From Hirudinaria manillensis (taxonomy: Eukaryota; Annelida; Clitellata; Hirudinida; Hirudinidae): a DNA stretch of 64,000 nucleotides. Position numbers and translations under genes: made by a program. Below the pieces are notes generated by a model. It was not told where the DNA came from. It ran no database searches and saw only the letters and a program-made list of their open reading frames with translations. Every line of letters starts with the position of its first letter. Position 1 is the first letter of the stretch. The stretch covers positions 1,519,142 to 1,583,141 of the forward strand of contig CM067532.1 of NCBI GenBank assembly GCA_034509925.1. Reading direction: 5' to 3'. Shown piece by piece: positions 2,225 to 47,800 of the stretch.

Positions 2225-2335
2225 ATGAAATTAATTTCGTGTCAATATTCAAATATTGGCGCCTTTGGCTTTGGCGTGGGTATATTAATAGGTTTTCGCG
2301 GGCTGTTTTAGTTTGAGAAGGTTTTGCTAGCGAAG
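2225..2335 (+). promoter_or_regulatory. Putative promoter and 5' UTR of micro-exon gene A
   Basis: A TATA-like TATATTAATA lies at 2281-2290, about 45 bases before the ATG at 2336. Just upstream are short dyads (TGAAATTAATTTC and CAAATATTGG). The block is nearly identical, inverted, ahead of gene B (10002-10120). In copy C it is deleted together with exon 1. Transcription initiation is inferred from position and conservation between copies only. Confidence 0.45.
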
Positions 2336-5300
2336 ATGAGTTCTATGGCCTTGCTATCGATTTTATTTATTTGTAAGTTTTTGTGTTTATTCGTTAAATT
2401 CGTATATTTCACAATCTTCTATTTGACGATGGCGTCTGTTGATTTCAGTACTCGCTTTTCTGGCGACGAATTCGGGAGTTAGTGCGCAGTTTTGAAAATG
2501 TTTTGTTATGTCTCCGTGAATAATAATTTTATGGCGCTTAATTTATATTTAATTTAAATTATTTTGTTGTGTTTTTTTTATTTAGTCAGAACTGTATCCA
2601 ATTAGTCCATTTTTTTTTACGTAGTTTTTGCTTAGCTTATTGTCCGTTAATTGTCTTGAAAAATTTAAATAAATAAATAAAAATTTATATTTAATTGAAT
2701 TAAATTTGTTCTTATAGGGGAACTTAACAGTTAGTTCATTTCTATGCTGTTATTTAAATCCCAGAATTTATAAAAGTTTTGAAAAACGTGAATTTATTTT
2801 GTTGCTTTCGTTATTATTATCCAGCTAACACTCCCAGTTAGTCTGTTTTTCGTGACGTCCTGAAATTATTTACTTAAGTAAAGACTTTGATTGAGTTTTA
2901 ATAAATACGTTATTGGTGTAATTTCTAAAAACTGCAAAGATTTAATAAATTTAAGAAATAGATAAAGTTAGTTTTGTTGGAAATTTTTAAATATTAATTT
3001 ATTTTAATCCATTATTTATCCAGCAAACACCCCCGGTTAGTCTATTTTTCGTGATTTTATTATTTAATTAAAACTTCGTTTTAATACATTAATTTCTAAA
3101 AACTGCAAATAAATAAAGTTAGCTTGTTGGAAAAGTCTAAATAAATATTAATTTATTTTAATTCGTTATTATCCAGGGAACACCCCCGGTTAGTCTGTTT
3201 TTCGTGATTTTATTATTTAATTAAAACTTCGTTTTAATACATTAATTTCTAAAAACTGCAAATAAATAAAGTTAGCTTGTTGGAAAAGTCTAAATAAATA
3301 TTAATTTATTTTCATTCGTTATTATCCAGGGAACACCCCCGGTTAGTCTGTTTTTCGTGACGTTATTATTTATATTATGAAAATTATATTATTATTAATT
3401 TCAGTAAATACATTATTGGTGTAATTTCTAAATTTCTTCTGTGTGAGTGAGTGAATGAGTGAGTAAGTAATTTCTAAAAACTGCAAATAAATAAAGTTGG
3501 TTTATTGGAAAAATTTAAATAAATATTTTATTTTATTTCGTTATTATCCAGGTAACGCCCCCGGTTAGTCTGTTTTTCGTCTGTGGTGACGTTATTATTT
3601 ATAAAATGGAAACTTAATATTAATTTCAGTAAATACATTATTGGTGTAATTTCTAAAAACTACAAATAAATAAAGTTGGTTTATTGGAAAAAATTGAATA
3701 AATATTTTATTTTAATTCCATTATTTCCACTTTAATTCCACTATTATCCAGGGAACGCCCCCAGTTAGTCTGTTTTTCGTGACATTATTATTTATTTAAT
3801 GAAACTTAATTTTAATTTAAGTAAATACATTATTGGTGTAATTTCTAAATTTCTTCTGAGTGAGTGAGTAATTTCTAAAAACTGCAAATAAATAAAGTTG
3901 GAATATATTGGACAATTTTAAATAAATATTATTTATTTTAATTCGTTATTATCCAGGGGAACGCCCAAAGTTAGTATATCTTTCGTGGCGTCCTGAAATC
4001 ATTTGATAGATACATCAGTTGAATTTTTATAAATGTTTTAATAAATACATTATTGGTGTGATTTCTAAAAAGCTGGAAATAAATAGATTAAATATATTGT
4101 GAAAATTTAAAATAAATAATTTATTTATTCTAATTCGTTTGATTGTTTTTTTATTGACCAGCCATTCGGAGCCGTTAGTCCACTTATAAATATTTCAAAC
4201 AAATTAATGTAAATTTACTTAATTTTGTTTCGTTATTGCCAAACATTTTTACATAACTTTCGTGTATTTTAGAAATTTAAATAAAATAATTTTTTTTTTG
4301 TTTTGTTATCCAGGAAGCAGAAACTGTTAGTCCATTTTTATGCGGTTTTTATAAAACTCTCCGAATTTCTAAATATTTCAAACCAATGATTTACAAATGT
4401 ACTTCATTGCAGTCGCTATCCTATTGTCTTAAGTTAGTGTATTTTTGTGGATCCTGTCCGACAAATCGTGAGATTGTTTTATTAGGACTTCCAAATTTCA
4501 AAAACTTCAAAAACATAAATATTCATCAATTGAAATGTGAATTAATTCGTGCTTTATAAGAGTGATGCCCGGGGGACTCCTTTCTAAGATTGTCAATTTT
4601 TACTTGGTTTTACGTTGAGCACAGAAACTATCATTTCGTTTCAGAAACCGGCAGAAACACAACCGCCGGCAACCGTTAGTATTCGTTGGATGAAGTTATT
4701 CATTATGTAGTATTATAACTGGTATTACGAAGCAGACGTTGTCTTGTGGTTGATGTCGTGAAGAATATGGTAACTGTTACTTCATCCAGGGCATTGATCA
4801 GATGAAATATTGATTATTGCCGCACTAGATGTAGAAGAGACTAATTCTTAAAAATAATTAGCGATAATAAAAATTTATGATGATAACCGAAGTGCTCTTT
4901 TTTTTTGTTTGCAGACTAAAGCTACAGTTAGTATATTTTGACGTATTCCATTCACTGAGATTGTATTGGGACGTCGTTTCAATTGGGACAGACCAACCCT
5001 TAGGCATAAACCGATGACTTTTTCTTTTGTTTCTCATCCTTGGTAGGTAGTTTCTCCAACTCTCCCATTCCCTCCCCCCAAATTATGTCCCTGAGGCCGT
5101 TTGCAAACTTCAATTGTAAGGCATTGGTCGTCTGCAAAAGCATCCCAGCGGTGAATTTGAGCACATTCAAGGGGCTGGTTGTAAATTGAAAGTGAAGTTT
5201 TTCGATGTCTTTGCATCGTGTTGTGTGATGTTTTCTCGAATTATTTTATTATATTTTGTTTATAATTTCGTTGAGTCATTTCCCTATTTGACTATTTTTT

Positions 5301-6028
5301 GCCGCTTTGTTACTTTTGTAATATTCCGATTACACTTCCTAACTTTGGCTCCTTTATCATATCCATTTCCTTTCCCTCGTTGGGATGAACATCTGATTCC
5401 GTCTGGGAAATATGCTTGATGTTTACGCTTATTACTCGACCATATTAATGAGGAACATGCCGTTACTAAGACTAATTCTTAAAGATAATTAGCGATAATA
5501 AAAATTGGTGATTGATGATGATAACCGAAGTGCTCTTTTTTGTTTGCAGACTAAGGCCACAGTTAGTATATCTTGACGTGTTCCATTCACTGTAGTTTTG
5601 TTGAGTCATTTTCCTGTTTGACTATTTTGTGCCGCTTTGTTACTTTTGTAATATTCCGATTACATTTCCTAAAATTGGTTTCTTTAACATATCCACTTCG
5701 TTTCCTTCATTGGGATGGAGATCTGGTTCCGACGGGAAATATGTTTGATGTTTATGTTTATTACTCGACCATTTTAACAAGTAATATGCCGTTTTGCTGT
5801 TTGTTCGTGGCTTTTCCCGTTAACAGTTCGATTTATGCTTATTGGTTCATCTTGCCATTTAAGAACATTTTGTGGTTTTCTGTTCTGTTTCAGATATTTT
5901 GGTCTCATGAGTTTCAAATGTTTCAGGGAACGTCTTTTGGATTGAGAGTCACTCCGGAAAGTTGGCAAAACTTGTCCTTGGTTGCCCTTCTCGTATCAAC
6001 GTTGGTACTGCAAAGGCTTTTGATGTGA
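2336..6028 (+). CDS. Micro-exon gene A: secreted Thr/Pro-rich protein assembled from 12-nt exons
   Basis: No family recognised. Exon 1 (2336-2372, donor GTAAGT) encodes MSSMALLSILFI. Exon 2 (2449-2477) completes a signal peptide, LLAFLATNSG, ending in phase 0. Then come phase-0 micro-exons, each preceded by AG and followed by GTTAGT: 2718-2729 GNLT, 2825-2836 LTLP, 3024-3035 QTPP, 3177-3188 GTPP, 3330-3341 GTPP, 3552-3563 VTPP, 3752-3763 GTPP, 4162-4173 PFGA, 4314-4325 EAET, 4645-4674 (30 nt, KPAETQPPAT), 4915-4926 TKAT, 5550-5561 TKAT. The last exon, 5927-6028, starts GTSFGLRVTPESW, has a hydrophobic stretch LSLVALLVSTLVL and stops after QRLLM. With all of these the protein is 109 residues. 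Candidate 3957-3969 is 13 nt and would break the frame, so it must be skipped. A candidate at 2586-2600 lacks a GT donor. The hydrophobic tail could be a GPI signal or a membrane anchor; the Arg near its end makes GPI less certain. Architecture matches schistosome-type micro-exon genes; function is unknown. Confidence 0.7.
2740..4330 (+). repeat. Tandem array of [12-nt exon + intron] units in gene A
   Basis: About seven to nine head-to-tail units run from 2740 to 4330. Micro-exon starts lie at 2825, 3024, 3177, 3330, 3552, 3752, 3957, 4162 and 4314, giving spacings of 199, 153, 153, 222, 200, 205, 205 and 152. The 153-base units are nearly identical. Each unit has a TTATTATCCAG acceptor, a 12-nt (once 13-nt) exon, GTTAGTCTGTTTTTCGTG, then a stretch around GGTGTAATTTCTAAAAACTG and AAATAAATAAAGTT. 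The last two (4162, 4314) are strongly diverged but keep exon length and donor. Copies B and C have a single unit at the matching place (9633-9644, 11380-11391). Confidence 0.85.
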
Positions 6029-6284
6029 CTTTTGGACCCACGTCTTGGAGCAGTAACTTTCGGAAACTTTTTCTTGAACTTTTGGAATGAATTCCTCTAC
6101 TACATAAACAGTTCACCACATGATTGTTACTTTCTATTTCGCGACTATAGATTAATTGTAAAGTGTTTAAGGTGCGTAGGGGCAGGTGCTTTGCCTTCGA
6201 TCGAGTACTTATTTTTGAATTGATAGAGAAAGCAAAATGGATTCAGTTTTGTCTTCCTGAGTTGATTAGATTTGTTTGTCTCGC

Positions 6285-7560
6285 TTACTTCTGACAATAA
6301 CCGGGTATGTCGTTTGGTCGTCCTGGAATTAACTCTACACACTTTGTAAAGACTTTTCTAAGCGTTCCGAGCGCTCCTACAATTACCGGTACGACTTTGG
6401 ACTTCACGTTCCATATCTGGTTAATTTCAATCTCCAGGTCCCTGTGTTTGCTAATTTTATAAGCCACTTTAAGCGCGATGCTTTTATCATCCGAGACTGA
6501 AACATCAATTAGCATGCACGACTTGGATCTCCCGTCATGGATGACAATGTCGGATCTGTTGGCCGATATATTCCTGTCTGTTGTGGTGGCGCACCAATAG
6601 GAGCGAGGCGCGGCAATCCTATTGTGTAAGGCCACTATAAATAGCCTTGTGGCTATTCCGCTTTCGCTCTTTGTCTCTCGATGTCGTAATAGTGTGATTA
6701 GTGAATAAAGCTACTTAACGTTTGTCTTAGACTAGTTATCCTTCGATTGAACGATATAACACTGTCCTTGATTATTGCGTACCCCCATAAGATGTTGCGC
6801 TTACTTATGTTTGTTCGTACCATTTCTTTGGAACTTCACGTCCTAGCTCACGGTATACAACCCAGTGAATGTAACTGGCCATCTTATTTTGTCGGTGCAG
6901 ATATATTCGGTTGCTGCTACCACAGTGCAACCCGACGTTATGTGGCTTATGGTTTCTTGGACCTTACCACAGATTCAGCAATTGTCATCTATCTGCTGCT
7001 TCAGTCATTCGTTGATAATATCTTCTGTTTAGTGTTTGGTCTTGAGCTGCCATGATCGAACTTTCAGTTTCGCTTCTTAACCAAGCACAACTTGCTTCTT
7101 TGTCCATACATGGCTTTTCAAAGTTACAAAAGAATTGTCCATGCATAGGCTTTTCCTTCACTTCATTTATTCTCTCCTTCTCCATGTTGTCCTTTAACAT
7201 TTCTTTCACAGATGTTTGAACTGTGGGCAATGGCATCTGCCATTTAGATATTTATATACAATTGTCTTTGCTTTCTTAAGGGAAGAATATTTTGCCTTCT
7301 CTGTTTTATGCTTTTTGACAAGACTACGGAACCTGTCTTTCAATGTTCAATATAATCACCTAAGCTAACCATAGCTGTAAGCTAACTGATGACACAGCAT
7401 AAGTTCGGTTTTCCATTCTTTCATCGAGCATTCCATGAAACCGGTGATTTTAGCGTGAGCATCAGAACTCCTTTTTGGGCGCTGTCCAGATTCTTTAGAG
7501 GGCTCTTGGGCGAATTGCTGGGAGCACTGGTAGCGCACAGCATCCATTCCCCACCGGCAA
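6285..7560 (-). pseudogene. Decayed non-LTR retrotransposon (LINE), reverse transcriptase to C-terminus
   Basis: Minus-strand fragments follow the order of a LINE ORF2. Near 7547-7400 is a reverse-transcriptase piece (ITGFMECSMKEWKTEL). At 7236-6985 comes KPMHGQFFCNFEKP..DKEASCAWLRSETESSIMAAQDQTLNRRY. Near 6970 is a Cys-His knuckle (CGKVQETISHITSGC) containing a stop, then MASYIHWVVYRELG in another frame. At 6635-6285 are SANRSDIVIHDGRSKSCMLIDVSV and PVIVGALGTLRKV. I recognise this as the conserved C-terminal region of a LINE family common in invertebrates. Stops, frame changes and an internal RT deletion make it non-functional. It occupies the centre of the A/B inverted repeat. Confidence 0.8.
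6590..6763 (+). mobile_element. Possible short solo LTR-like insert within the LINE
   Basis: The LINE reading is interrupted between about 6780 and 6600. In this interval there is a TATAAATAG at 6636-6644, a poly(A)-type AATAAA at 6704-6709 and an end GATATAACA at 6753-6761, the order expected of a plus-strand LTR. No partner LTR or coding region is seen, and I could not define the left end or a target duplication. Confidence 0.3.
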
Positions 7561-8215: not shown

Positions 8216-10001
8216 TCACATCAAAAGCCTTTGCAGTACCAACGTTGATACGAGAAGGGCAACCAAGGACAAGTTTAGCCAACTTTCCGGAGTGACTCTC
8301 AATCCAAAAGACGTTCCCTGAAACATTTGAAACTCATGAAACCAAAATATCTGAAACAGCTCAGAAAATCACAAAATGTTCTTAAATGGCAAGATGAACC
8401 AATAAGCATAAACCGAACTGTTAACGGGAAAAGCCACGAACAAACAGCAAAACGGCATATTACTCGTTAAAATGGTCAACAAACATAAACATCAAACATA
8501 TTTCCCGTCGAAACCAGATCTCCATCCCAATGAAGGAAACGAAGTGGATATGTTAAAGAAACCAATTTTAGGAAATGTAATCGGAATATTACAAAAGTAA
8601 CAAAGTGGCACAAAATAGTCAAACAGGAAAATGACTCAACGAAATTATAAACAAAATATAATAAAATAATTTGAGAAAACACCAAAGTCGATTCAAATGC
8701 ATCTAAAAACTTCATTTTCAATTTACAACCAGCCCAGTAAATGTGCTCAAATTCACCGCTTTTGCAGACGACCAACGCCTTACAATTGAAATTTGCAAAC
8801 TGCCTCAGGGACATAATTTGGGGGAAGGAAGGGTAGAATTGGAGAAACCCCCTACTAAGGATAAGAAACAAAAGGAATGGTTCATCGGTTTATGCCTAAG
8901 GGTTGGTCTGTCCCAAGTGAAAAAAACTGAAACGACACCCCCATACAACCTCAGTGAATGGAACACGTCAAGATATACTAACTGTGACTTTAGTCTGCAA
9001 ACAAAAAAGAGCACTTCGGTTATCATCATCAATCACCAATTTTTATTATCGCTAATAATCTTTAAGAATTGGTCTCTTAGTAACGGCATGTTACTTATTA
9101 AAATGGTCAAGTAATAAACATAAACATCAAACATATTTCCCAGACGGAACCAGATATACTAACTGTAGCTTTATCTTTAGGCTGTAAACAAAAAAAGAGC
9201 ACTTCGGTTATCATCATAAATTTTTATTATCGCTAATTATTTTTAAGAATTAGTCTCTTCTACATCTTGTGCGGCAATAATCAATATTTCATCTGATCAA
9301 TGCCCTGGATGAAGTAACAGTTACCATGTTCTTCACGACATCAACCACAAGACAACGTCTGCTTCGTAATACCAGTTATAATACTACATAATGAATAACT
9401 TCATCCAACGAATACTAACGGCCGCCACCGTTGTCGCTCCTTCTCCTTCCTGGAGAAAAAAAAATTAAACAAATAAATTAAAAATAAATTAAACTAGAAT
9501 AAATTAACATCTATTTAAATTTTTATAATAAACAAGCTCTATTTATTTGAAGTTTTTAGAAATTATACCAATAAGTTATTTATCGAAATTTGAAGAATTT
9601 CTTAAATAATTTCAGGAAGCCACGAAAGAGACTATGGGTACTGGCTGGATAATAACGAAATCAATTAAATAAATATATATTTTTAAAATTTTTGAGTCCG
9701 AGGAATTGAACAAAAACAGCGCAGAAAACAACCTATAAGCCTATAAGAACCAAAGACTAAAAAAAAACTGAACAAAATGACTTATATTAAACATAAATTA
9801 AACGCCAAAAAATTATTATTTGCGGAGATATAACAAAATTTCCGAACCTCCGCACTAACTCCTGAATTCGTCGCCAGAAAAGCGAGGACTGAAATCAACA
9901 GACGCCATCGTCAAATAGAAGATTGTGAAATATACGAATTTAACGAATAAACACAAAAACTTACAAATACATAAAATCGATAGCAAGGCCATAGAACTCA
10001 T
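8216..10001 (-). CDS. Micro-exon gene B: intact 7-exon paralogue, 79 residues
   Basis: Read on the minus strand, exon 1 is 10001-9965 (MSSMALLSILCI). Exon 2 is 9888-9860 (FLAFLATNSG, completing a signal peptide). The micro-exons are 9644-9633 (12 nt, PVPI, donor GTCTCT), 9449-9420 (30 nt, EGEGATTVAA), 9181-9164 (18 nt, PKDKAT) and 8994-8983 (12 nt, TKVT). The last exon is 8317-8216 (102 nt, GTSFGLRVTPESW, LSLVALLVSTLVL, stop). Lengths 37+29+12+30+18+12+102 sum to 240 nt, one open frame of 79 residues plus stop, with AG acceptors and GT donors throughout. The 18-nt exon is a two-codon in-frame enlargement of the 12-nt TKAT/PKAT exon in A and C. This copy lacks the tandem GTPP array. It is the strongest evidence that the micro-exons are real: substitutions change residues and exon length changes only by whole codons. 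Function is unknown; secretion to or display at the cell surface is inferred. Confidence 0.75.
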
Positions 10002-10120: not shown

Positions 10121-11000
10121 TTTAATTAAACTATTTTATTCCCTAATAAATAAATATTTTATGTTTTTGACAGCCACTGCAATATCTATAATTATTTTTA
10201 CTCCTTTGTAGCAACACTAAGCACGTAAAGAAATTTTTCTAGGGCATAAAATTTTTAATTTAAAAATTTCTCGAATTAATATGAAAACAAATTTTTAAAA
10301 AAATTGAGTTTTAACCAAACCCTGCACCTAGTAAACACTTATAAATGACCATCAAATAGATATTAGTTCATCATTAAACACTCCAATTTAAGCAAAAATT
10401 CATTTCCAAGCGTCATTACACTAATTAAACGATGATTACTATAAACCCCCACAACATGCTCATATAACGTTGCCATGGTGATGCTGTATTTGATGAAGCT
10501 AAAAAAAATCTCGTCTTGTCACAAAAAGTGCTTTAAATTGGAATAAATTCATTTTCGACGGTGCAACGTCGTAATGTAACGGATACGATGATGACGACGA
10601 CGATGATGAGGGTTACAAGGTCCTGTTCAGCAAAACAATATCGTCCTTACGGAATGGTTCGTGCGAGTTTAGTGAATGACATCCGCCATGACTTTCATTT
10701 CCGAGGCAGTGACCTCTAGGCGCCTGGCCCTTGACTGTGTTTAATTTGTGGCGGAAGAGTTATGGCGAAATGGCATCACCATGGCAACGTTATGTGAGCA
10801 TGTTGTGGCGGTTTATAGTTAACATCGTTTAATTAGTGTAATGACGCTTGGAAATGAATTTTTGCTTAAATTGGAGTGTTTAATGATCGACTAATATTTA
10901 TTTGATGGTCATTGATTGTATATATTTGTGGGTTTTTCTGTTTATTCGTTAAATTCGTATATTTCATAATCTATTTGACGATGGCGTCTGTTGATTTCAG

Positions 11001-12957
11001 TCCTCATTTTTCTGGCGACGAATTCAGGAGTTAGTGCGGAGGTTCGAAAATGTTTTGTTATATCTCCGCAATTTTTTGGCGTTTAATTTAAATCATTTTT
11101 TTCAGTTGTTTTTTATTTTATTTAGTCGGACCTGTATCCGATTAGTCCGTTTTATGTAGTTTTCGCTTAAGTTATTCTCTTAAGTTATTAGTTGTCTTGA
11201 AAATTTAAATAAATAAATTTGAAAATAAGGTGCAAATAAATGTGTATTATTTTAAATTTATTCGAACTTTATTGATGAGGCAAGAGTTGGTTGTTTTCTG
11301 CGCGGTTTTTGCTCAATTCCCCGGACTCATAAAAAGTTTTAAAATATATATTTATTTAATTGATTTCGTTATTATTCAGCCAGTACCCATAGTCTCTTTC
11401 GTGGCTTCCTGAAATTATGTAAGAAATTCTTCAAATTTCGATAAATAACTTATTGGTATAATTTCTAAAAACTTCAAATAAATAGAGCTTGTTTATTATA
11501 AAAATTTAAATAGATGTTAATTTATTCTAGTTTAATTTATTTTTAATTTATTTGTTTAATTTTTTTGTCTCCAGGAAAGAGCAGGAGCGACAACGGCGGC
11601 GGCCGTTAGTATTCGTTGGATGAAGTTATTCATTATGTGGTATTATAACTGGTATTACGAAGCAGACGTTGTCTTGTGGTTGATGTCGTGAAGAATATGG
11701 TAACTGTTACTTCATCCAGGGCATTGATCAGATGAAATATTGATTATTGCCGCACTAGATGTAGAAGAGACTAATTCTTAAAAATAATTAGCGATAATAA
11801 AAATTTATGATGATAACCGAAGTGCTCTTTTTTTTTGTTTACAGCCTAAAGCTACAGTTAGTATATTTTGACGTGTTCCATTCACTGAAGTTGTGTGGGG
11901 ATGCCGTTTTAGCTTTTTTTTCAATTGGGACAGACCAACCCTCATGCATAAACCGATGACTTTCTTTTGTTTCTCATCCTTGGTAGGTAGTTTCTCCAAC
12001 TCTCCCATTCCCTCCCCCCAAATTATGTCCCTGAGGCAGTTTGCAAATTTCAATTGAGGCATTCGAATGTCATCAAAAGCATCCCATCGGTGAATTTGAA
12101 CACATTTACGGGGCTGGTTGTAAATTAAAAGTGGAGTTTTTCTATGTCTTTGCATCGACTTTGGTGTTTTCTCGAATTATTTTATATTTTGTTTATAATT
12201 TCGTTGAGTCATTTCCCTGTTTGACTATTTTTTGCCGCTTTGTTACTTTTGTAACACTCCGATTACACTTCCTAACTCTGGTTCCTTTATCATATCCATT
12301 TCCTTTCCCTCGTTAGGATGAACATCTGATTCCGTCTGGGAAATATGCTTGATGTTTACGCTTATTACTCGACCATATTAATGAGGAACATGCCGTTACT
12401 AAGACTAATTCTTAAAGATAATTAGCGATAATAAAAATTGGTGATTGATGATGATAACCGAAGTGCTCTTTTTTGTTTGCAGACTAAAGCCACAGTTAGT
12501 ATATCTTGTCGTGTTCCATTCACTGTAGTTTTGTTGAGTCATTTTCCTGTTTGACTATTTTGTGCCACTTTGTTACTTTTGTAATATTCCGATTACATTT
12601 CCTAAAATTGGTTTCTTTAACATATCCACTTCGTTTCCTTCCTTGGGATGGAGATCTGGTTCCGACGGGAAATATGTTTGATGTTTATGTTTGTTGACCA
12701 TTTTAACAAGTAATATGCCGTTTTGCTGTTTGTTCGTGGCTTTTCCCGTTAACAGTTCGGTTCATGCTTATTGGTTCATCTTGCCATTTAAGAACATTTT
12801 GTGATTTTCTGAGCTGTTTCATATATTTTGATCTGATGAGTTTCAAATGTTTCAGGGTGGAAAGTCTTTTGGATTGAGAGTCACTCCGGAAAGTTGGCAA
12901 AACTTGTATTTAGTTGCCCTTCTTTCAACGTGGGTCCTGCAAAGGCTTTTAATGTGA
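11001..12957 (+). pseudogene. Micro-exon gene C: paralogue lacking the signal-peptide start exon
   Basis: Recognisable exons are 11001-11029 (29 nt, homologue of exon 2), 11380-11391 (PVPI, donor GTCTCT), 11575-11604 (30 nt, ERAGATTAAA), 11845-11856 (PKAT), 12483-12494 (TKAT) and 12856-12957 (102 nt, GGKSFGLRVTPESW, LYLVALLSTWVL, stop). All keep AG/GT borders and frame. The last exon has a +3 and a -3 change relative to A and B yet the same total length, which suggests past protein-level selection. However, the interval that should hold the promoter and the MSSMALL exon is deleted between about 10905 and 10930. The ATG that remains at 10981 would read out of frame. Either this copy is dead, or it uses an unseen alternative first exon or trans-splicing. 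Confidence 0.6.
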
Positions 12958-30250: not shown

Positions 30251-33200
30251 GTGACGACGACAATAACAATAACAACAACAATAGAAGAATTAGGATTGCT
30301 AAGACATTCTTGTTATCATTAATAAATGCATCTGACTAGGACTGACTTTAGGATAGATGGTGATCCCTTTGAAACTGTCCATGAGGACCATTATGCTGTC
30401 CCGGACATCTGAAGCCCCCTGCCCAACGATGTTGTAGATTTCACGTGATTTTCCCTCCCTCAGCCTCAGGTACCAGAGACCGGGCGATGCCTTGAGCTGG
30501 AAGTAGCCTAGGTTCGCCATGACGATGGTGTCGACGAGCGCTGGGGTGGAGTTCGTCCCGAGGATGAACTGGAGCCCCCTGGGGGGATTTCCGGTGAGGA
30601 GGTCGTAGCATCGGCCCTCGAGCAAGAGCTTCTCCAGCTCGAACTCGGCCGAGACACGGGACTCCACCTCCGCCATGAGGATGTTGTCGAGGTCGTATGG
30701 CGAGTGGACGGCCTCCACCAGCCAGCTCTCTGGGGTGTCCATGTTGAGGGTGAGCAGCGAATTCTCCGGCAGGCCATAAAAGAGGGCTCCAGGGGCGACC
30801 AGGGCCTCATCTTTGACCTGGGGCTCCGAGTTCAGAACGAACCTGTAGAAGCTCTTCAGGGGCATCTCAGAGAGCTTTTCCCGGCAGTTCAAGAATATCT
30901 TGATGTCGGCATTGACGACCCTGCTCAGGGCCTCGATGACGGGCACGAACTTCTGCGCGCCCCTCGAGACGGGATCTAGGACGGCCACGATGTCGAAGGT
31001 CGGGCCCGGTTCGGGTGCCTCGATGTGGATGATGCTGTGCTCCATGTCAACGAATTTCAACTGGACCCTGTTCTCCCTGTGACTCTGCGACATGAGGACG
31101 CTCTCCAGTCGCATGACGAGGTCCGAGGACGTCTCTCCCTCCAGTTTATAGGACTTGACGATCCTGTCCACCTTCTCCACGAAGGTCGCCTGCGAAACCC
31201 TCTCCATGAGTTCAAAGTCCTTCTCAACGAAGGTGAAGTTTTCATCCAATGGCCCGATGACCTGAAAAGCAGTTTGAATTCTAACTTGAAATTATAACGT
31301 CCTACTAACGAATTGATAACAAATCAATTCACGAATCACGATCACATTATGTTATTTATTTTTTTAAATAAAATTTCCATACCCTCATTATCATAATAAA
31401 TGCCATGAGTCAGAATACCTTTCCATTGGCCACGACAGCTAGTGAGGATGGAGGCAGTCTGAGTACTTTCTGACAGAAGGTCCTGTGCAAGTTCAGGAGA
31501 TCATTTCTTCTGTTCTCAAGTCCCTGAATGAATGAATCCATGTCCATGTTCTGCAAGGACCGATCATAATAATTTATGCATTTATTAATTTTGGCAAGCT
31601 ACTAACATTCAAATCTACATAGTTTCTCGAATAATATGAGACAAAATAAAACAACAAAACAACTATCTATTATCAACCTGCAAGGGTCAATTATAATAAT
31701 AATATTATAATATCCTAATCAAATATTAATTCATTCGTGCCAGTTATTAATATTAAAATCGTAAGGCAATCACGAGCTCTCCATCATAGGCCAATCTCGA
31801 AGAGCCGTAACATCTCGGCCGCGACTCTCACCCCGACCGAGAATTCCGCCAGGTTATTGTAGTCTTCGGTCACTCGGGGCACGTTTTCCTCCCTGAGAAT
31901 TTTGAAGAGGAAGTTCTTTGCCACGTTGAGGCCCAGAGTTTCGATGGCGAGTTGGACCACGGAGGAGATTCTGCTGCCGCCCTTCAGTCTGGCAGAGGAG
32001 TCGGGCAGGTTGTGTATCAGGCCGAGTCTCATGTTGTTCGTGTGCTTCTGAAATCGTTTACGTTCGAAAGTTCAAAGGTCAAAAAGTTGAACTTAAAAAT
32101 CTGTCTATAAAAAAAAAACCTTAAAAAATCACGTCACTTGTGCCAGCAGATGCAACATGCAAACCTTAACCCGGTGCATGCAGAATAAAGGCATCAATAA
32201 AAAGAATAAAATATGATCGGCTATTTGCTATTTAGGTTATCATCATCATCACCACCACCACCATCATCATCATGCATAGTAACCAACATCAATCGCCAGA
32301 AACCCCCCCTGCAGTCTTAGGTGCTACTTGCAAACAAAGAGCCATTTGTCGTCACCAATCAGAAAAGAATGCCGTGCACTCGCAAACAAACTCACAAGAT
32401 GCTTGAGGGCGGAGAGGAAGAGGCTTCGACCCTCGGGCTTTTCGAGGTCGCAGACCACCCATACCGTCAGAGGTCTGAGCTTTGATTCCTCTGAGAGAAT
32501 AAATTATGAAAATTACTCCATGATTACCTTTGCATAATTTATTTATAGCAAAGATTCTGTGATCATCTACATAAATATAGATTGGCCAAAATCAGATTTT
32601 GTGACATTTTTTTTATAGACCATTGCTTTGTTTTAAATAAATTTTGATTTATTATTCACTTAAATAAAAGATTAAAGGTCAATAAATCGAGCATCCACGT
32701 CACCAACCATTCTTGACGAGGTACTTCATATCTGCCGAAAGTAGGGAGACGAGAGATGCATCGTCCAATGAGCCCGGATTGGAGCCGCTGAATATTGATG
32801 AGGTGGCTGCAAGAAACACGATTGGTTGAATCAGTCTTTGCGCATAATTTAAATATTAATTATAATTTAAATATAATATATTTAATATAAATATTCTGAT
32901 GATCTATTTGTTCAATCAATTCCTCCAGCCATTTCAATGGAGATCCAAAGAATGTTTTAACAGATGACCAAAGATACCTAGGAGAACAAATAAAAAAATA
33001 AAAACGTGCACAAAGACGCAAACTCACGATTCACTCTGGCCAAGTCGAGGTACCGGTCGGTCGGCTGGAGTACCCTCTGGTTCAGTCGGGGCATTATGTT
33101 CTTCTGGGTCATCAGGAAATCGATGACCACGTCATTGTCGGTCAACGCGCCACTGTAAACGAACTTCTGTAAGTCCGAGGTCTGCCTCAGGACCTTCTGG

Positions 33201-44800: not shown

Positions 44801-47800
44801 ACTTAATTATTTATATACTATTATTATTTAAAAAAGTAAAGAACACTAGGCTCCATCGTAGATTACCTGATCTGGACATGCCGAGAGCAAGGCATTTCTT
44901 GAGTCGGCAGTACTGGCACCTGTTGCGCGTGACGACGTTTATGTCACAGTTCCTGTTGTAATAGCACTTCTTTCGGCTCGGATCACCGATGTCCTGGAGA
45001 GCTCTCCTGAAGAATCCCTGAAGCGTGGAAAAGAAGGTTGGAAATGCACTTTTCACGTTGCTCGTATTCGTCCGATTCTGGCATTTCGTAAAGATGTGAG
45101 CGATGCTTGTATTTGTGACATTTGTATTTGTATATGTGACGTTTGTATTTGTGACATTTGAGGTTGTATTTGTGACATTTGATGTTTGTATTTGACAGTG
45201 ATTTCAAGAGAAAACAAGCAACGTTGAGCTTGCTCATTCCACTTATGAAGATCGCCTCCATTGTAAGAGCATAGACGGACACATAATAACTTGTTGAATT
45301 TACACATATAGATGTTTTAATTTATTAAAAGCAGAATAGGCAATTTTTACTAACAACAACCGTTTAAGATAACACTGAAATCCAATAATAGTTAAATTTC
45401 TGGAATTCAATAAATCAACAATTCCAAATTGACTTCATCAATGATTTGAATTTATTTGAAAAAAAATCAGCACGGGCCAACGGCCCCTCGCCGAAACCGA
45501 AAACAAAAACCAGTGCACCAACCCCTCAATCTAAATTGTAAATTCTATTAACAAAAAATAATGATAATTCATATTCCTTAATAACGTGCAAATTAATAAT
45601 AATAATTTTATAATATTATTATTATATTATTACTACTTCACAGAGTTCTTGAAATTAATCAAATGAATGTCTGTCTCTCTCGGTCCACAAATCCAATCTC
45701 AGTCCATAACTCCAGTATTCATCTAGTGTCCAATTCCTATTTAAGACTTCATCCTATGAAAATATCATACCCCCTCACAATGCTGCCTGAGCAACAATCT
45801 CAGAGTTACACACTGGCAGAGATCCAAGCACTCCATTTATAGTAATCTGGACCACCCCAGACGAACAAAGCTAATGATATGCTAATGCCACCTTAAAAAT
45901 CAGGCAGAGTTATCAAGGAGCTATCAATATCAAAAACAAACATCAATAAATTATTGGAAAATCCCAAGTTCTATTGGCCAAGTCTGGATGAGATGATGAT
46001 GATGATGAATAAGAAGAGGAAGACAAAAATTACTTTGCATCCTTCGCAGGCCAACACCCCGTAGTGCACCCCCGATGACTTGTCCCCGCACACGAGACAC
46101 TTGTGGACCACGAATGGCAGTCCCTCTGAATTCTCCTGGTTTGCAGACTCTCTCTGAACAATCTTCTGAGCAACTGAAAGTATGCAGTCGATCGGTCATA
46201 CTATGAGTTGCTTGCGAATAATCAGCATTTGGGAAAAAAATTTGAGTCTAAGTTTCAAAAGAGAGGTTACAAGAGGTAATTTTAATATTAATTAATATTT
46301 TAATATTATATTTTAATATTAATTAATCAATAACGTCTAAATCGTAACGAGGGAAGTTTTGATTTGTAAATTAATATTGTTGTTTCTTTCAATATAATAA
46401 TAATAATAACAATAATAACAATAAGTTTTAGTTAGTTTTCAATTATATAATTAATAGAATCAAGCAACTGCAAGATCATTGGTCTGCACCACATGCATGG
46501 ATATTACATCAGCATTCAGCAAGGATTCTATCAATACCAATGTTAACCAGATTGTGAACAGACAAGCGAATTGATTACAGAAAACTTGATTACAGAAAAC
46601 ATCAGCTTGAAATTCAAAAGAACTCAATGAAAAAACCAGGTTACTCAGTAAAACAACCCATGTTTATAACTTCAATGCAAACAAACGAGTTACTAATAAC
46701 TCCTACTAATACTACTAATACTAATAATACTAATAACGTTTGGCTAATGAATTAGAATAAATTAATGCACGTCACGACTAAACAGTGAACTGAAAAAGAA
46801 AGATTATACTCTCGATATGTCCCTGCATAGACAAAAAACCCAACTCAAACTGATGACTATCAGCACAGCCACTTAAGATAGTCTCCGCTCTATTTCTTAG
46901 TAGCAGTCCTAAAAAGCACTTATTAGGAGATGCAGGTAGGCCTCACGTAAATAAGCCATTTGCAAGAACAGATCGACTATTGAATTTCAAAAGTTATTTA
47001 AAACATTGGAAGTCTGTAAAAGCTCAGCTTCATAATTTATTTCTAAATCCAGTTTAAAAAACTTTAATTAATCAACCAATACCATCAATATTGACCAACA
47101 ATAGCAGAAAAAGAATTCATCACCACTTCTACAACAAAACACTTGCCAACAAAAAAACGACCTCACGAGGAAACGGAAAAAACGAGCCTCTCCGCTCTTT
47201 CATTCGTTCTTCCAACCAACCTGAACTACCGTCGACCACTTTGAACAGCGGCACTTCTTGCGGCTCTTCCGCCTGATCCGTCTTGATGGCGTTCTCCAGT
47301 TCCCCGTTGTCGGACGTCCAAGGCAGGGTGGTGATGAAGACGGAATCGTCGCCGTTAAGTTTCGTCGTGAGGAGGTAGAAGGGGGCCCCTACGTCTTTGG
47401 TCTGCTCGAGGGTAGAATGTTCCGGAAGCTTCGAGGTCCAGAGGTCCGAACTGATGGCGGGTGATTCGGTGGCGTTTGGTTCCGCACCGCCGGAGTCGAG
47501 ATGGTTCCTGTCGATGATTTCGACGTGTTCTATAAACTCTCCATCCTGGTGGACCAGCTGTCCGACCACAGAGGAATCGTTCTGGATGAGTTGGATGAAG
47601 TTGTAGTGCTTCTGCTGCTCCTCTTCTTCTTCTCGCTCGTCTTCGACGTGCATGTCGAGCTCCGTCTCGTCGAGATAATTCGAGGAGTCGTTGCATTCCG
47701 AACTGCCGAACGTCAGGGAGTTCACGCCGCTCATGAGGTGCGACGTTCCTACGGCGAATGAAAACGTCTTGTCCTCGTCGGCAGTGCTCGACGACCGCGG

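What the first reader, a model, noticed from the sequence alone, without database searches (positions are those of the whole stretch)
2336..6028. A micro-exon gene: signal peptide plus a string of 12-nt phase-0 exons
Between a split signal-peptide exon pair and a 102-nt last exon lie at least eleven 12-nt segments and one of 30 nt. Each is preceded by AG, followed by GTTAGT and readable in phase 0 as four- or ten-residue cassettes (GNLT, LTLP, QTPP, GTPP, GTPP, VTPP, GTPP, PFGA, EAET, KPAETQPPAT, TKAT, TKAT). Exon lengths that are multiples of three let any subset be skipped without losing frame, so one gene could make many secreted or surface variants. Schistosome micro-exon genes follow the same logic, but this sequence resembles none that I recognise.
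Basis: partly seen in the sequence, partly recalled or inferred. Interest (0 to 1): 0.95.

Follow-up and report, generated by a model that had tools for sequence, protein, structure and literature searches.

The report
Leech gene with tiny cassette exons
A leech gene appears to build a short, probably cell-surface protein from a dozen tiny exons, each a whole number of codons, an architecture best known from parasitic flatworms; RNA evidence is still needed.

Summary
Gene A (2336-6028, +) has a split signal-peptide-like exon pair, eleven 12-nt and one 30-nt segments, and a 102-nt last exon. Read in phase 0 they give an open 109-residue protein; all 4,096 cassette subsets stay in frame. Eleven AG-N12-GTTAGT motifs lie in 3.8 kb, against a shuffle mean of 0.05 and maximum of 1.

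Most likely it is a real, fast-evolving leech micro-exon gene that works like flatworm MEGs but arose independently. Splicing, optional inclusion and surface location are inferred; no RNA was available. Exons diverge between copies as much as introns do, so constraint is weak. Paper searches pairing leech or annelid with micro-exon terms listed no such gene.

The parts
2336..2372 (+). Copy A exon 1 (37 nt): start codon and first part of the hydrophobic N-terminus, donor GTAAGT
   Evidence: present in copy B with one change
2449..2477 (+). Copy A exon 2 (29 nt): end of the signal-peptide-like stretch, ends in phase 0, donor GTTAGT
   Evidence: present in A, B and C
2718..2729 (+). Cassette GNLT (12 nt), contains an N-x-T sequon
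2825..2836 (+). Cassette LTLP (12 nt), XTPP family
3024..3035 (+). Cassette QTPP (12 nt)
3177..3188 (+). Cassette GTPP (12 nt), in a 153-nt tandem unit
3330..3341 (+). Cassette GTPP (12 nt)
3552..3563 (+). Cassette VTPP (12 nt)
3752..3763 (+). Cassette GTPP (12 nt)
3957..3969 (+). 13-nt unit with the same AG and GTTAGT borders; would break the frame; probably a dead cassette
4162..4173 (+). Cassette PFGA (12 nt)
4314..4325 (+). Cassette EAET (12 nt)
4413..4432 (+). 20-nt CAG...GTTAGT segment, not in frame; dead or not an exon
4645..4674 (+). Cassette KPAETQPPAT (30 nt)
   Evidence: a 30-nt cassette with other residues sits at the same place in B and C, though only its 3' half aligns with A
4915..4926 (+). 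Cassette TKAT (12 nt); 18 nt (PKDKAT) in copy B
5550..5561 (+). Cassette TKAT (12 nt)
5927..6028 (+). Copy A last exon (102 nt): GTSFGLRV... with a hydrophobic C-terminal tail and stop
   Evidence: its protein was found 3 times in the genome search, all in this cluster
8216..10001 (-). Copy B, inverted: exons at 10001-9965, 9888-9860, 9449-9420 (30 nt), 9181-9164 (18 nt), 8994-8983 (12 nt), 8317-8216; a possible 12-nt unit 9644-9633 has donor GTCTCT
11001..12957 (+). Copy C: exon 2 at 11001-11029, then 11575-11604 (30 nt), 11845-11856, 12483-12494, 12856-12957; a possible 12-nt unit 11380-11391 has donor GTCTCT; exon 1 and the stretch before it (A 1974-2355) are missing and the one alternative start tested is out of frame, so probably a 5'-truncated copy

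Best explanation
This is a real leech gene for a small, fast-evolving exported protein made largely from micro-exons. Exons 1 and 2 give a signal peptide. Then come 12 phase-0 cassettes (11 of 4 residues, one of 10) making a stalk rich in Thr, Pro and Ala, probably O-glycosylated. The last exon ends in a short hydrophobic tail that would act as a GPI-anchor signal or, less likely, a membrane anchor. Cassettes multiplied by tandem duplication of an exon with its short intron. The introns are short (median 199 nt), so the spliceosome could pair sites across introns and exon size would matter little. The donor GTTAGT is not an enriched hexamer in this genome, so cassettes may often be skipped; every subset stays in frame, so stalk length and sequence can vary. 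Shown: the sequence layout, the frame, the copies, the length changes. Inferred: splicing, optional inclusion, export, glycosylation, anchoring.
For: Motif density far above shuffles and genome controls; 7 of 8 exact TTATCCAG-N12-GTTAGT matches reported for the genome are here. Full open frame; 4,096 of 4,096 cassette subsets in frame, 1,920 distinct proteins. Copies B and C keep the AG/GT borders of exon 2, the 30-nt, TKAT1 and TKAT2 exons and the acceptor of the last exon. The three length differences in these exons are +6, +3 and -3; of the intron/flank gaps 9 of 33 are multiples of 3, or, by my hand count of distinct events, 4 of 21. In the six XTPP cassettes the changes in codons 2 and 4 are silent, codon 3 has one replacement, codon 1 varies in residue. 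Replacement/silent counts are 5/2, 7/7 and 10/5 for A-B, A-C and B-C on about 3:1 sites, a crude dN/dS of 0.85, 0.33 and 0.70. Among seven unit types of A the donor hexamer is identical while the next 80 intron bases are 30-40% alike, near the random 30%. Hydrophobic ends and a 65% P/T/A/S middle in A, 50% in B. GTGAGT is 1.75 times its expectation in background sequence, GTTAGT 1.02 times.
Against: No RNA evidence. Exon divergence between copies is about equal to or above intron divergence (A-B 4.2 vs 4.7%, A-C 9.2 vs 5.5%, B-C 8.2 vs 4.2%), so strong purifying selection is absent; this fits fast evolution but also relaxed constraint. Two of 14 internal units in A are out of frame. Copy C lacks exon 1. 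Units were picked by their GTTAGT border, so its uniformity is partly by selection. Genome-wide the motifs are not enriched: with one mismatch 41 matches against 60 for the reversed control, and 59 against 152. Three in-frame length changes are few, and the copies are not independent. GTAAGT, a standard donor, is also hardly enriched in the background (1.08), so the hexamer test of donor strength is weak. A good signal-peptidase site is not obvious once exon 2 is joined to GNLT (by eye). No homologue was found, but those databases are not shown to cover leeches.
Confidence: 0.7

Rival explanations
1. A real micro-exon gene in which all cassettes are always included. Diversity then comes only from exon duplication and loss over evolution, not from splicing in one animal.
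For: Uniform borders and short introns would allow regular splicing; copies A and B differ strongly in cassette number (12 vs 3 clear ones), showing change by duplication or loss.
Against: Donor GTTAGT is not an enriched hexamer in this genome, and the 13-nt unit, which has the same borders, would break the frame if it were always included.
Confidence: 0.17
2. A decaying locus: B is the working form with a few cassettes, and the XTPP array in A is a recent tandem expansion of intron and exon units that is mostly not spliced in.
For: Out-of-frame units in A, truncated C, exon divergence as high as intron divergence.
Against: Twelve of 14 units in phase with no stop in any of the twelve, silent changes in TPP codons.
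Confidence: 0.09
3. No gene: a product of a non-coding tandem repeat with splice-site-like borders.
For: Six of the 12-mers are copies of one repeat unit; a control stretch shows that a repeat alone can give a cluster of bordered segments (L017).
Against: Five further unit types outside that repeat (GNLT, PFGA, EAET, the 30-nt one, TKAT) also have lengths divisible by three and open frames; signal-like and tail exons join in phase; copies keep the borders.
Confidence: 0.04

Closest known systems
Flatworm micro-exon genes (MEGs; Schistosoma, Echinococcus, Hymenolepis)
   Same: Signal peptide first, then very short exons mostly divisible by three, secreted or membrane-anchored product, family growth by duplication, fast evolution (passages of PMC4350168, PMC7653826 and PMC10526429 seen).
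   Different: Leech, not flatworm; no sequence match found in the databases searched; one cluster of three copies found instead of tens of genes; nearly all cassettes exactly 12 nt, where S. mansoni ones are mostly 15 bp; introns 76-623 nt against 0.1-5 kbp; no expression data.
Aphid bicycle genes
   Same: Many small internal exons in one phase, N-terminal signal sequence, fast evolution (passages of PMC9168663 seen).
   Different: Bicycle internal exons are nearly all phase 2 and the proteins carry CYC motifs; here phase 0 and no cysteine in the predicted A protein.
Myxozoan micro-exon gene used as a fish vaccine candidate
   Same: Shows that the term has been used outside flatworms (one passage of PMC8481699).
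   Different: Its structure was not examined here.

Membership tests
Micro-exon gene, structural definition of PMC7653826 | At least seven exons | tested here: met
   Copy A has 15 predicted exons. Copy B has 6 clear ones and fails; 7 if the uncertain unit 9644-9633 is counted
Micro-exon gene, structural definition of PMC7653826 | At least half of the exons under 70 nt and divisible by three | tested here: met
   12 of 15 predicted exons in A
[quoted passage not shown]
   Run of 12 in A if the two out-of-frame units are not exons; copy B has a run of 3, or 4 with the uncertain unit
Micro-exon gene, structural definition of PMC7653826 | Exons taken from a genome annotation | not testable with these tools
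   No RNA or gene models were available; the exons are predicted by eye and script
Flatworm MEG family by descent | Found in a platyhelminth | tested here: not met
   Assembly sizes match Hirudinaria manillensis; COX1 fits the invertebrate code (470.3 bits) better than the flatworm codes 9 and 14 (448.3)
Flatworm MEG family by descent | Sequence similarity to a known MEG | tested here: inconclusive
   No Pfam match above cut-off, no PDB match, best database E-value 1.1; no direct comparison with MEG proteins was made
Flatworm MEG family by descent | Signal peptide | tested here: inconclusive
   Hydrophobic N-terminus, Kyte-Doolittle mean up to 2.93 over 15 residues; no signal-peptide predictor was available
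GPI-anchored mucin-like protein | Thr/Pro-rich middle and a hydrophobic C-terminal tail | tested here: met
   65% P/T/S/A in the middle of A (29 of 54 residues are P or T) and a tail mean up to 2.1 over 15 residues; in B the middle is 50% P/T/S/A and has one Pro
GPI-anchored mucin-like protein | GPI attachment and glycosylation | not testable with these tools
   Needs protein work or a predictor
Aphid bicycle genes | Internal exons in phase 2 and CYC motifs | tested here: not met
   Cassettes in phase 0; no cysteine in the predicted A protein

The most novel reading that the evidence does not exclude
A leech, an annelid that feeds on vertebrate blood, evolved on its own a micro-exon gene of the flatworm type: weak donors and 12-nt cassettes let one gene produce up to about 1,900 different surface stalks by combinatorial exon skipping.
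Probability: 0.35. Interest if true: 0.82.

Novelty: new variant of a known kind. Interest (0 to 1): 0.66.

Why it matters
One paper says that micro-exon genes appear to be restricted to flatworms (PMC4350168, passage). An annelid case, in a blood feeder, would suggest that this gene design arises repeatedly where a variable exported protein is useful. Because exon-unit duplication can be read directly here (two neighbouring 141-nt introns in 153-nt units are 99% alike), the locus also shows how such an array grows and loses units. It gives a compact test of how exons of 12 nt are spliced.

Tried and rejected
Looked for more copies: of 13 DNA matches in two genome searches, 11 are in this cluster and 2 are scraps of 38 and 45 nt on C5 and C9 from an AT-rich intron stretch; the last-exon protein matched three times, all here. 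These tools score only the best candidates. Looked for other 12-nt arrays behind TTNCAG with donor GTTAGT or GTAAGT: 59 and 67 matches (reversed controls 152 and 120); outside this cluster no place had more than two within 5 kb. These patterns miss other exon lengths and acceptors, including the XTPP units of A themselves. A pair of identical 12-mers 2 kb apart on C2 was not followed. One pair on C5, 7 kb apart, was read: the 12-mers lie inside a duplicated longer open frame, so it is not a micro-exon array. A possible alternative start for copy C at 10905 is out of frame with exon 2. A first pattern of my own making found nothing. Ribosomal RNA searches for the organism failed and an SSU pattern found nothing. 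No Rfam match in the window at gathering scores. Papers tied to leech saliva, mucin and splicing gave nothing useful in the listing.

Corrections, seen: the 6-nt difference between A and B in TKAT1 was misplaced there (gaps of 4 and 1, and one extra mismatch in the exon, hence 8 exon differences against 7); the +3 at the start of C's last exon was booked as flank twice; two gaps are at alignment ends. The 30-nt exon of A was left out of the A-B and A-C counts because only its end aligns, and exon 1 was left out for C.
Full report
WHERE IT IS. The window lies on contig 7 of an assembly of 148.4 Mb in 23 contigs. Contig 1 has 14,755,599 bases, contig 13 has 8,303,845 and contig 23 has 15,581. 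The paper on the Hirudinaria manillensis genome (PMC10671345, passages seen) gives 13 chromosomes of 14.76 to 8.30 Mb and a mitochondrial genome of 15,581 bp. I take the organism to be this leech. Another leech with 13 chromosomes, Hirudo verbana, has 177.8 Mb and a mitochondrial genome of 18,667 bp and does not fit (PMC12820476, passages). COX1 on contig 23 scores 470.3 bits under the invertebrate code, 469.5 under the ascidian code, 448.3 under the flatworm codes and 443.7 under code 4. The order cox3-trnQ-nad6-cytb (cox3 and nad6 recognised from memory) is, as I recall, the usual annelid order. The locus lies between a filamin end and a gene with a Ras-association domain (Pfam) that I recall as RASSF-like.

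THE OBSERVATION. Joined, they give MSSMALLSILFILLAFLATNSG, then GNLT LTLP QTPP GTPP GTPP VTPP GTPP PFGA EAET KPAETQPPAT TKAT TKAT, then GTSFGLRVTPESWQNLSLVALLVSTLVLQRLLM and a stop, 330 nt in all. Eleven AG-N12-GTTAGT motifs occur in 2300-6100 against a shuffle mean of 0.051 and maximum of 1 in 1,000 shuffles; none lies in the window outside the cluster, and 1 in 18 control stretches of 10 kb. Two fetched stretches (L030, mitochondrial, and L031, 2 kb) were left out of that control. In the genome search, TTATCCAG-N12-GTTAGT matched exactly 8 times, 7 of them here; with one mismatch there are 41 matches against 60 for the reversed pattern, so the motif is concentrated here but not enriched genome-wide. 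In a scan of 230,900 background bases (the 18 stretches and window 13101-64000) for clusters of one exon length from 6 to 36 nt within 3.3 kb, the highest count was 5, against 11 here. That 5 (length 31) comes from a tandem repeat with nine copies in L017.

LIMITS OF THAT COUNT. Six of the 12-mers belong to a tandem family of exon plus intron. The introns that follow them and the 13-nt unit are 141 to 210 nt long and 64 to 99% alike without gaps; six of the eight values of 0.75 or less involve the intron after the 13-nt unit (which took the intron after the last XTPP cassette only as far as the 13-nt unit). So there are about six unit types. Two more units with the same borders are 13 and 20 nt long and break the frame; I read them as dead. 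In the XTPP family codons 2 and 4 vary silently, codon 3 has one replacement (LTLP), and codon 1 varies in residue. Among seven unit types the donor hexamer is identical while the following intron bases fall to 30-40% identity, near the random 30%; but the units were found by that hexamer.

THE NEIGHBOURING COPIES. Self-comparison shows an inverted copy B and a direct copy C, and genome searches show no further copy. B keeps exon 1, exon 2, a 30-nt cassette (EGEGATTVAA), an 18-nt cassette (PKDKAT), a 12-nt one (TKVT) and the last exon; C keeps exon 2, a 30-nt cassette (ERAGATTAAA), PKAT, TKAT and the last exon, but lacks exon 1. A further 12-nt unit (PVPI) in B and C is bordered by GTCTCT and is uncertain. 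The three length differences in the shared exons are +6, +3 and -3. Gaps in introns and flanks: 9 of 33 are multiples of three as booked; after pooling shared events and dropping the exon-edge, misplaced and end gaps, my hand count is 4 of 21 distinct events. Three of three in frame would come up by chance about 1 time in 30 to 150; the numbers are small and the copies are not independent. Exons diverge about as much as introns (A-B) or more (A-C, B-C), and replacements are 5, 7 and 10 against 2, 7 and 5 silent changes for A-B, A-C and B-C. For B-C in the 30-nt and TKAT cassettes all four changes are replacements. This looks like fast evolution or weak constraint, not strong conservation.

HOW IT WOULD WORK. 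The first residues are strongly hydrophobic (15-residue means up to 2.93), and the C-terminus holds a hydrophobic tail (up to 2.1). The middle of A is 65% P, T, S or A and has one N-x-T sequon in GNLT. I infer an exported, glycosylated stalk held at the surface, most likely by GPI; no predictor was available. The cassettes start in phase 0 and are divisible by three, so all 4,096 subsets are open, with 1,920 distinct products. If the intron after a cassette were retained, a stop would follow after 5 to 78 codons. Background sequence favours GTGAGT (189 against 108 expected) and not GTTAGT (69 against 68), but GTAAGT is hardly enriched either (82 against 76). The thirteen GTTAGT donors in A may therefore be weak, which would favour skipping; this is an inference from hexamer counts, not from known introns.

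COMPARISON. Only after this I compared it with known systems. A definition used for tapeworm MEGs (exons under 70 nt divisible by three, at least seven exons, at least half micro, runs of four; PMC7653826, passages) is met by A, and by B only if the uncertain PVPI unit is counted. [quoted passage not shown] PMC10526429 (passages) gives mostly 15-bp exons and introns of 0.1 to 5 kbp. Aphid bicycle genes (PMC9168663, passages) share many small exons but in phase 2. A myxozoan micro-exon gene is mentioned in PMC8481699 (one passage). Searches for leech with microexon or micro-exon and for annelid with micro-exon gene listed 1, 1 and 3 papers, none of which, by title, abstract start or the passages seen of three, is about such a gene in a leech or annelid (passages 45, 54, 55); the library holds open-licence papers only. 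So it works like a MEG, but membership by descent is not supported.

VERDICT. I hold it about 0.9 likely that this is a protein-coding gene with spliced micro-exons, about 0.7 for the whole explanation, and about 0.35 for rich combinatorial splicing in the animal.

Noticed in passing
window 6285-6710, minus strand: A 141-codon open frame in the spacer between copies A and B resembles, from memory, the end of a retrotransposon reverse transcriptase; Pfam gave no match. It may have helped the inversion.
   Followed up: partly
window 30299-31291, minus strand: Part of a UDP-glucose glycoprotein glucosyltransferase (Pfam).
   Followed up: no
window 44811-45203, minus strand: A nuclear-receptor zinc-finger exon (zf-C4).
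   Followed up: no
L037 491-502 and 7628-7639: Two 12-mers with CAG and GTAAGT borders 7 kb apart on contig 5; they lie inside a duplicated longer open frame and are not a micro-exon array.
   Followed up: yes
L017 1449-9500: A tandem repeat of about 780 nt with nine copies of one AG...GT-bordered 31-mer on contig 2.
   Followed up: no
window 2449-2495: Read through its donor, exon 2 continues as GVSAQF and a stop; VSA would, from memory, be a good signal-peptidase site, so an unspliced or alternative end is conceivable.
   Followed up: no
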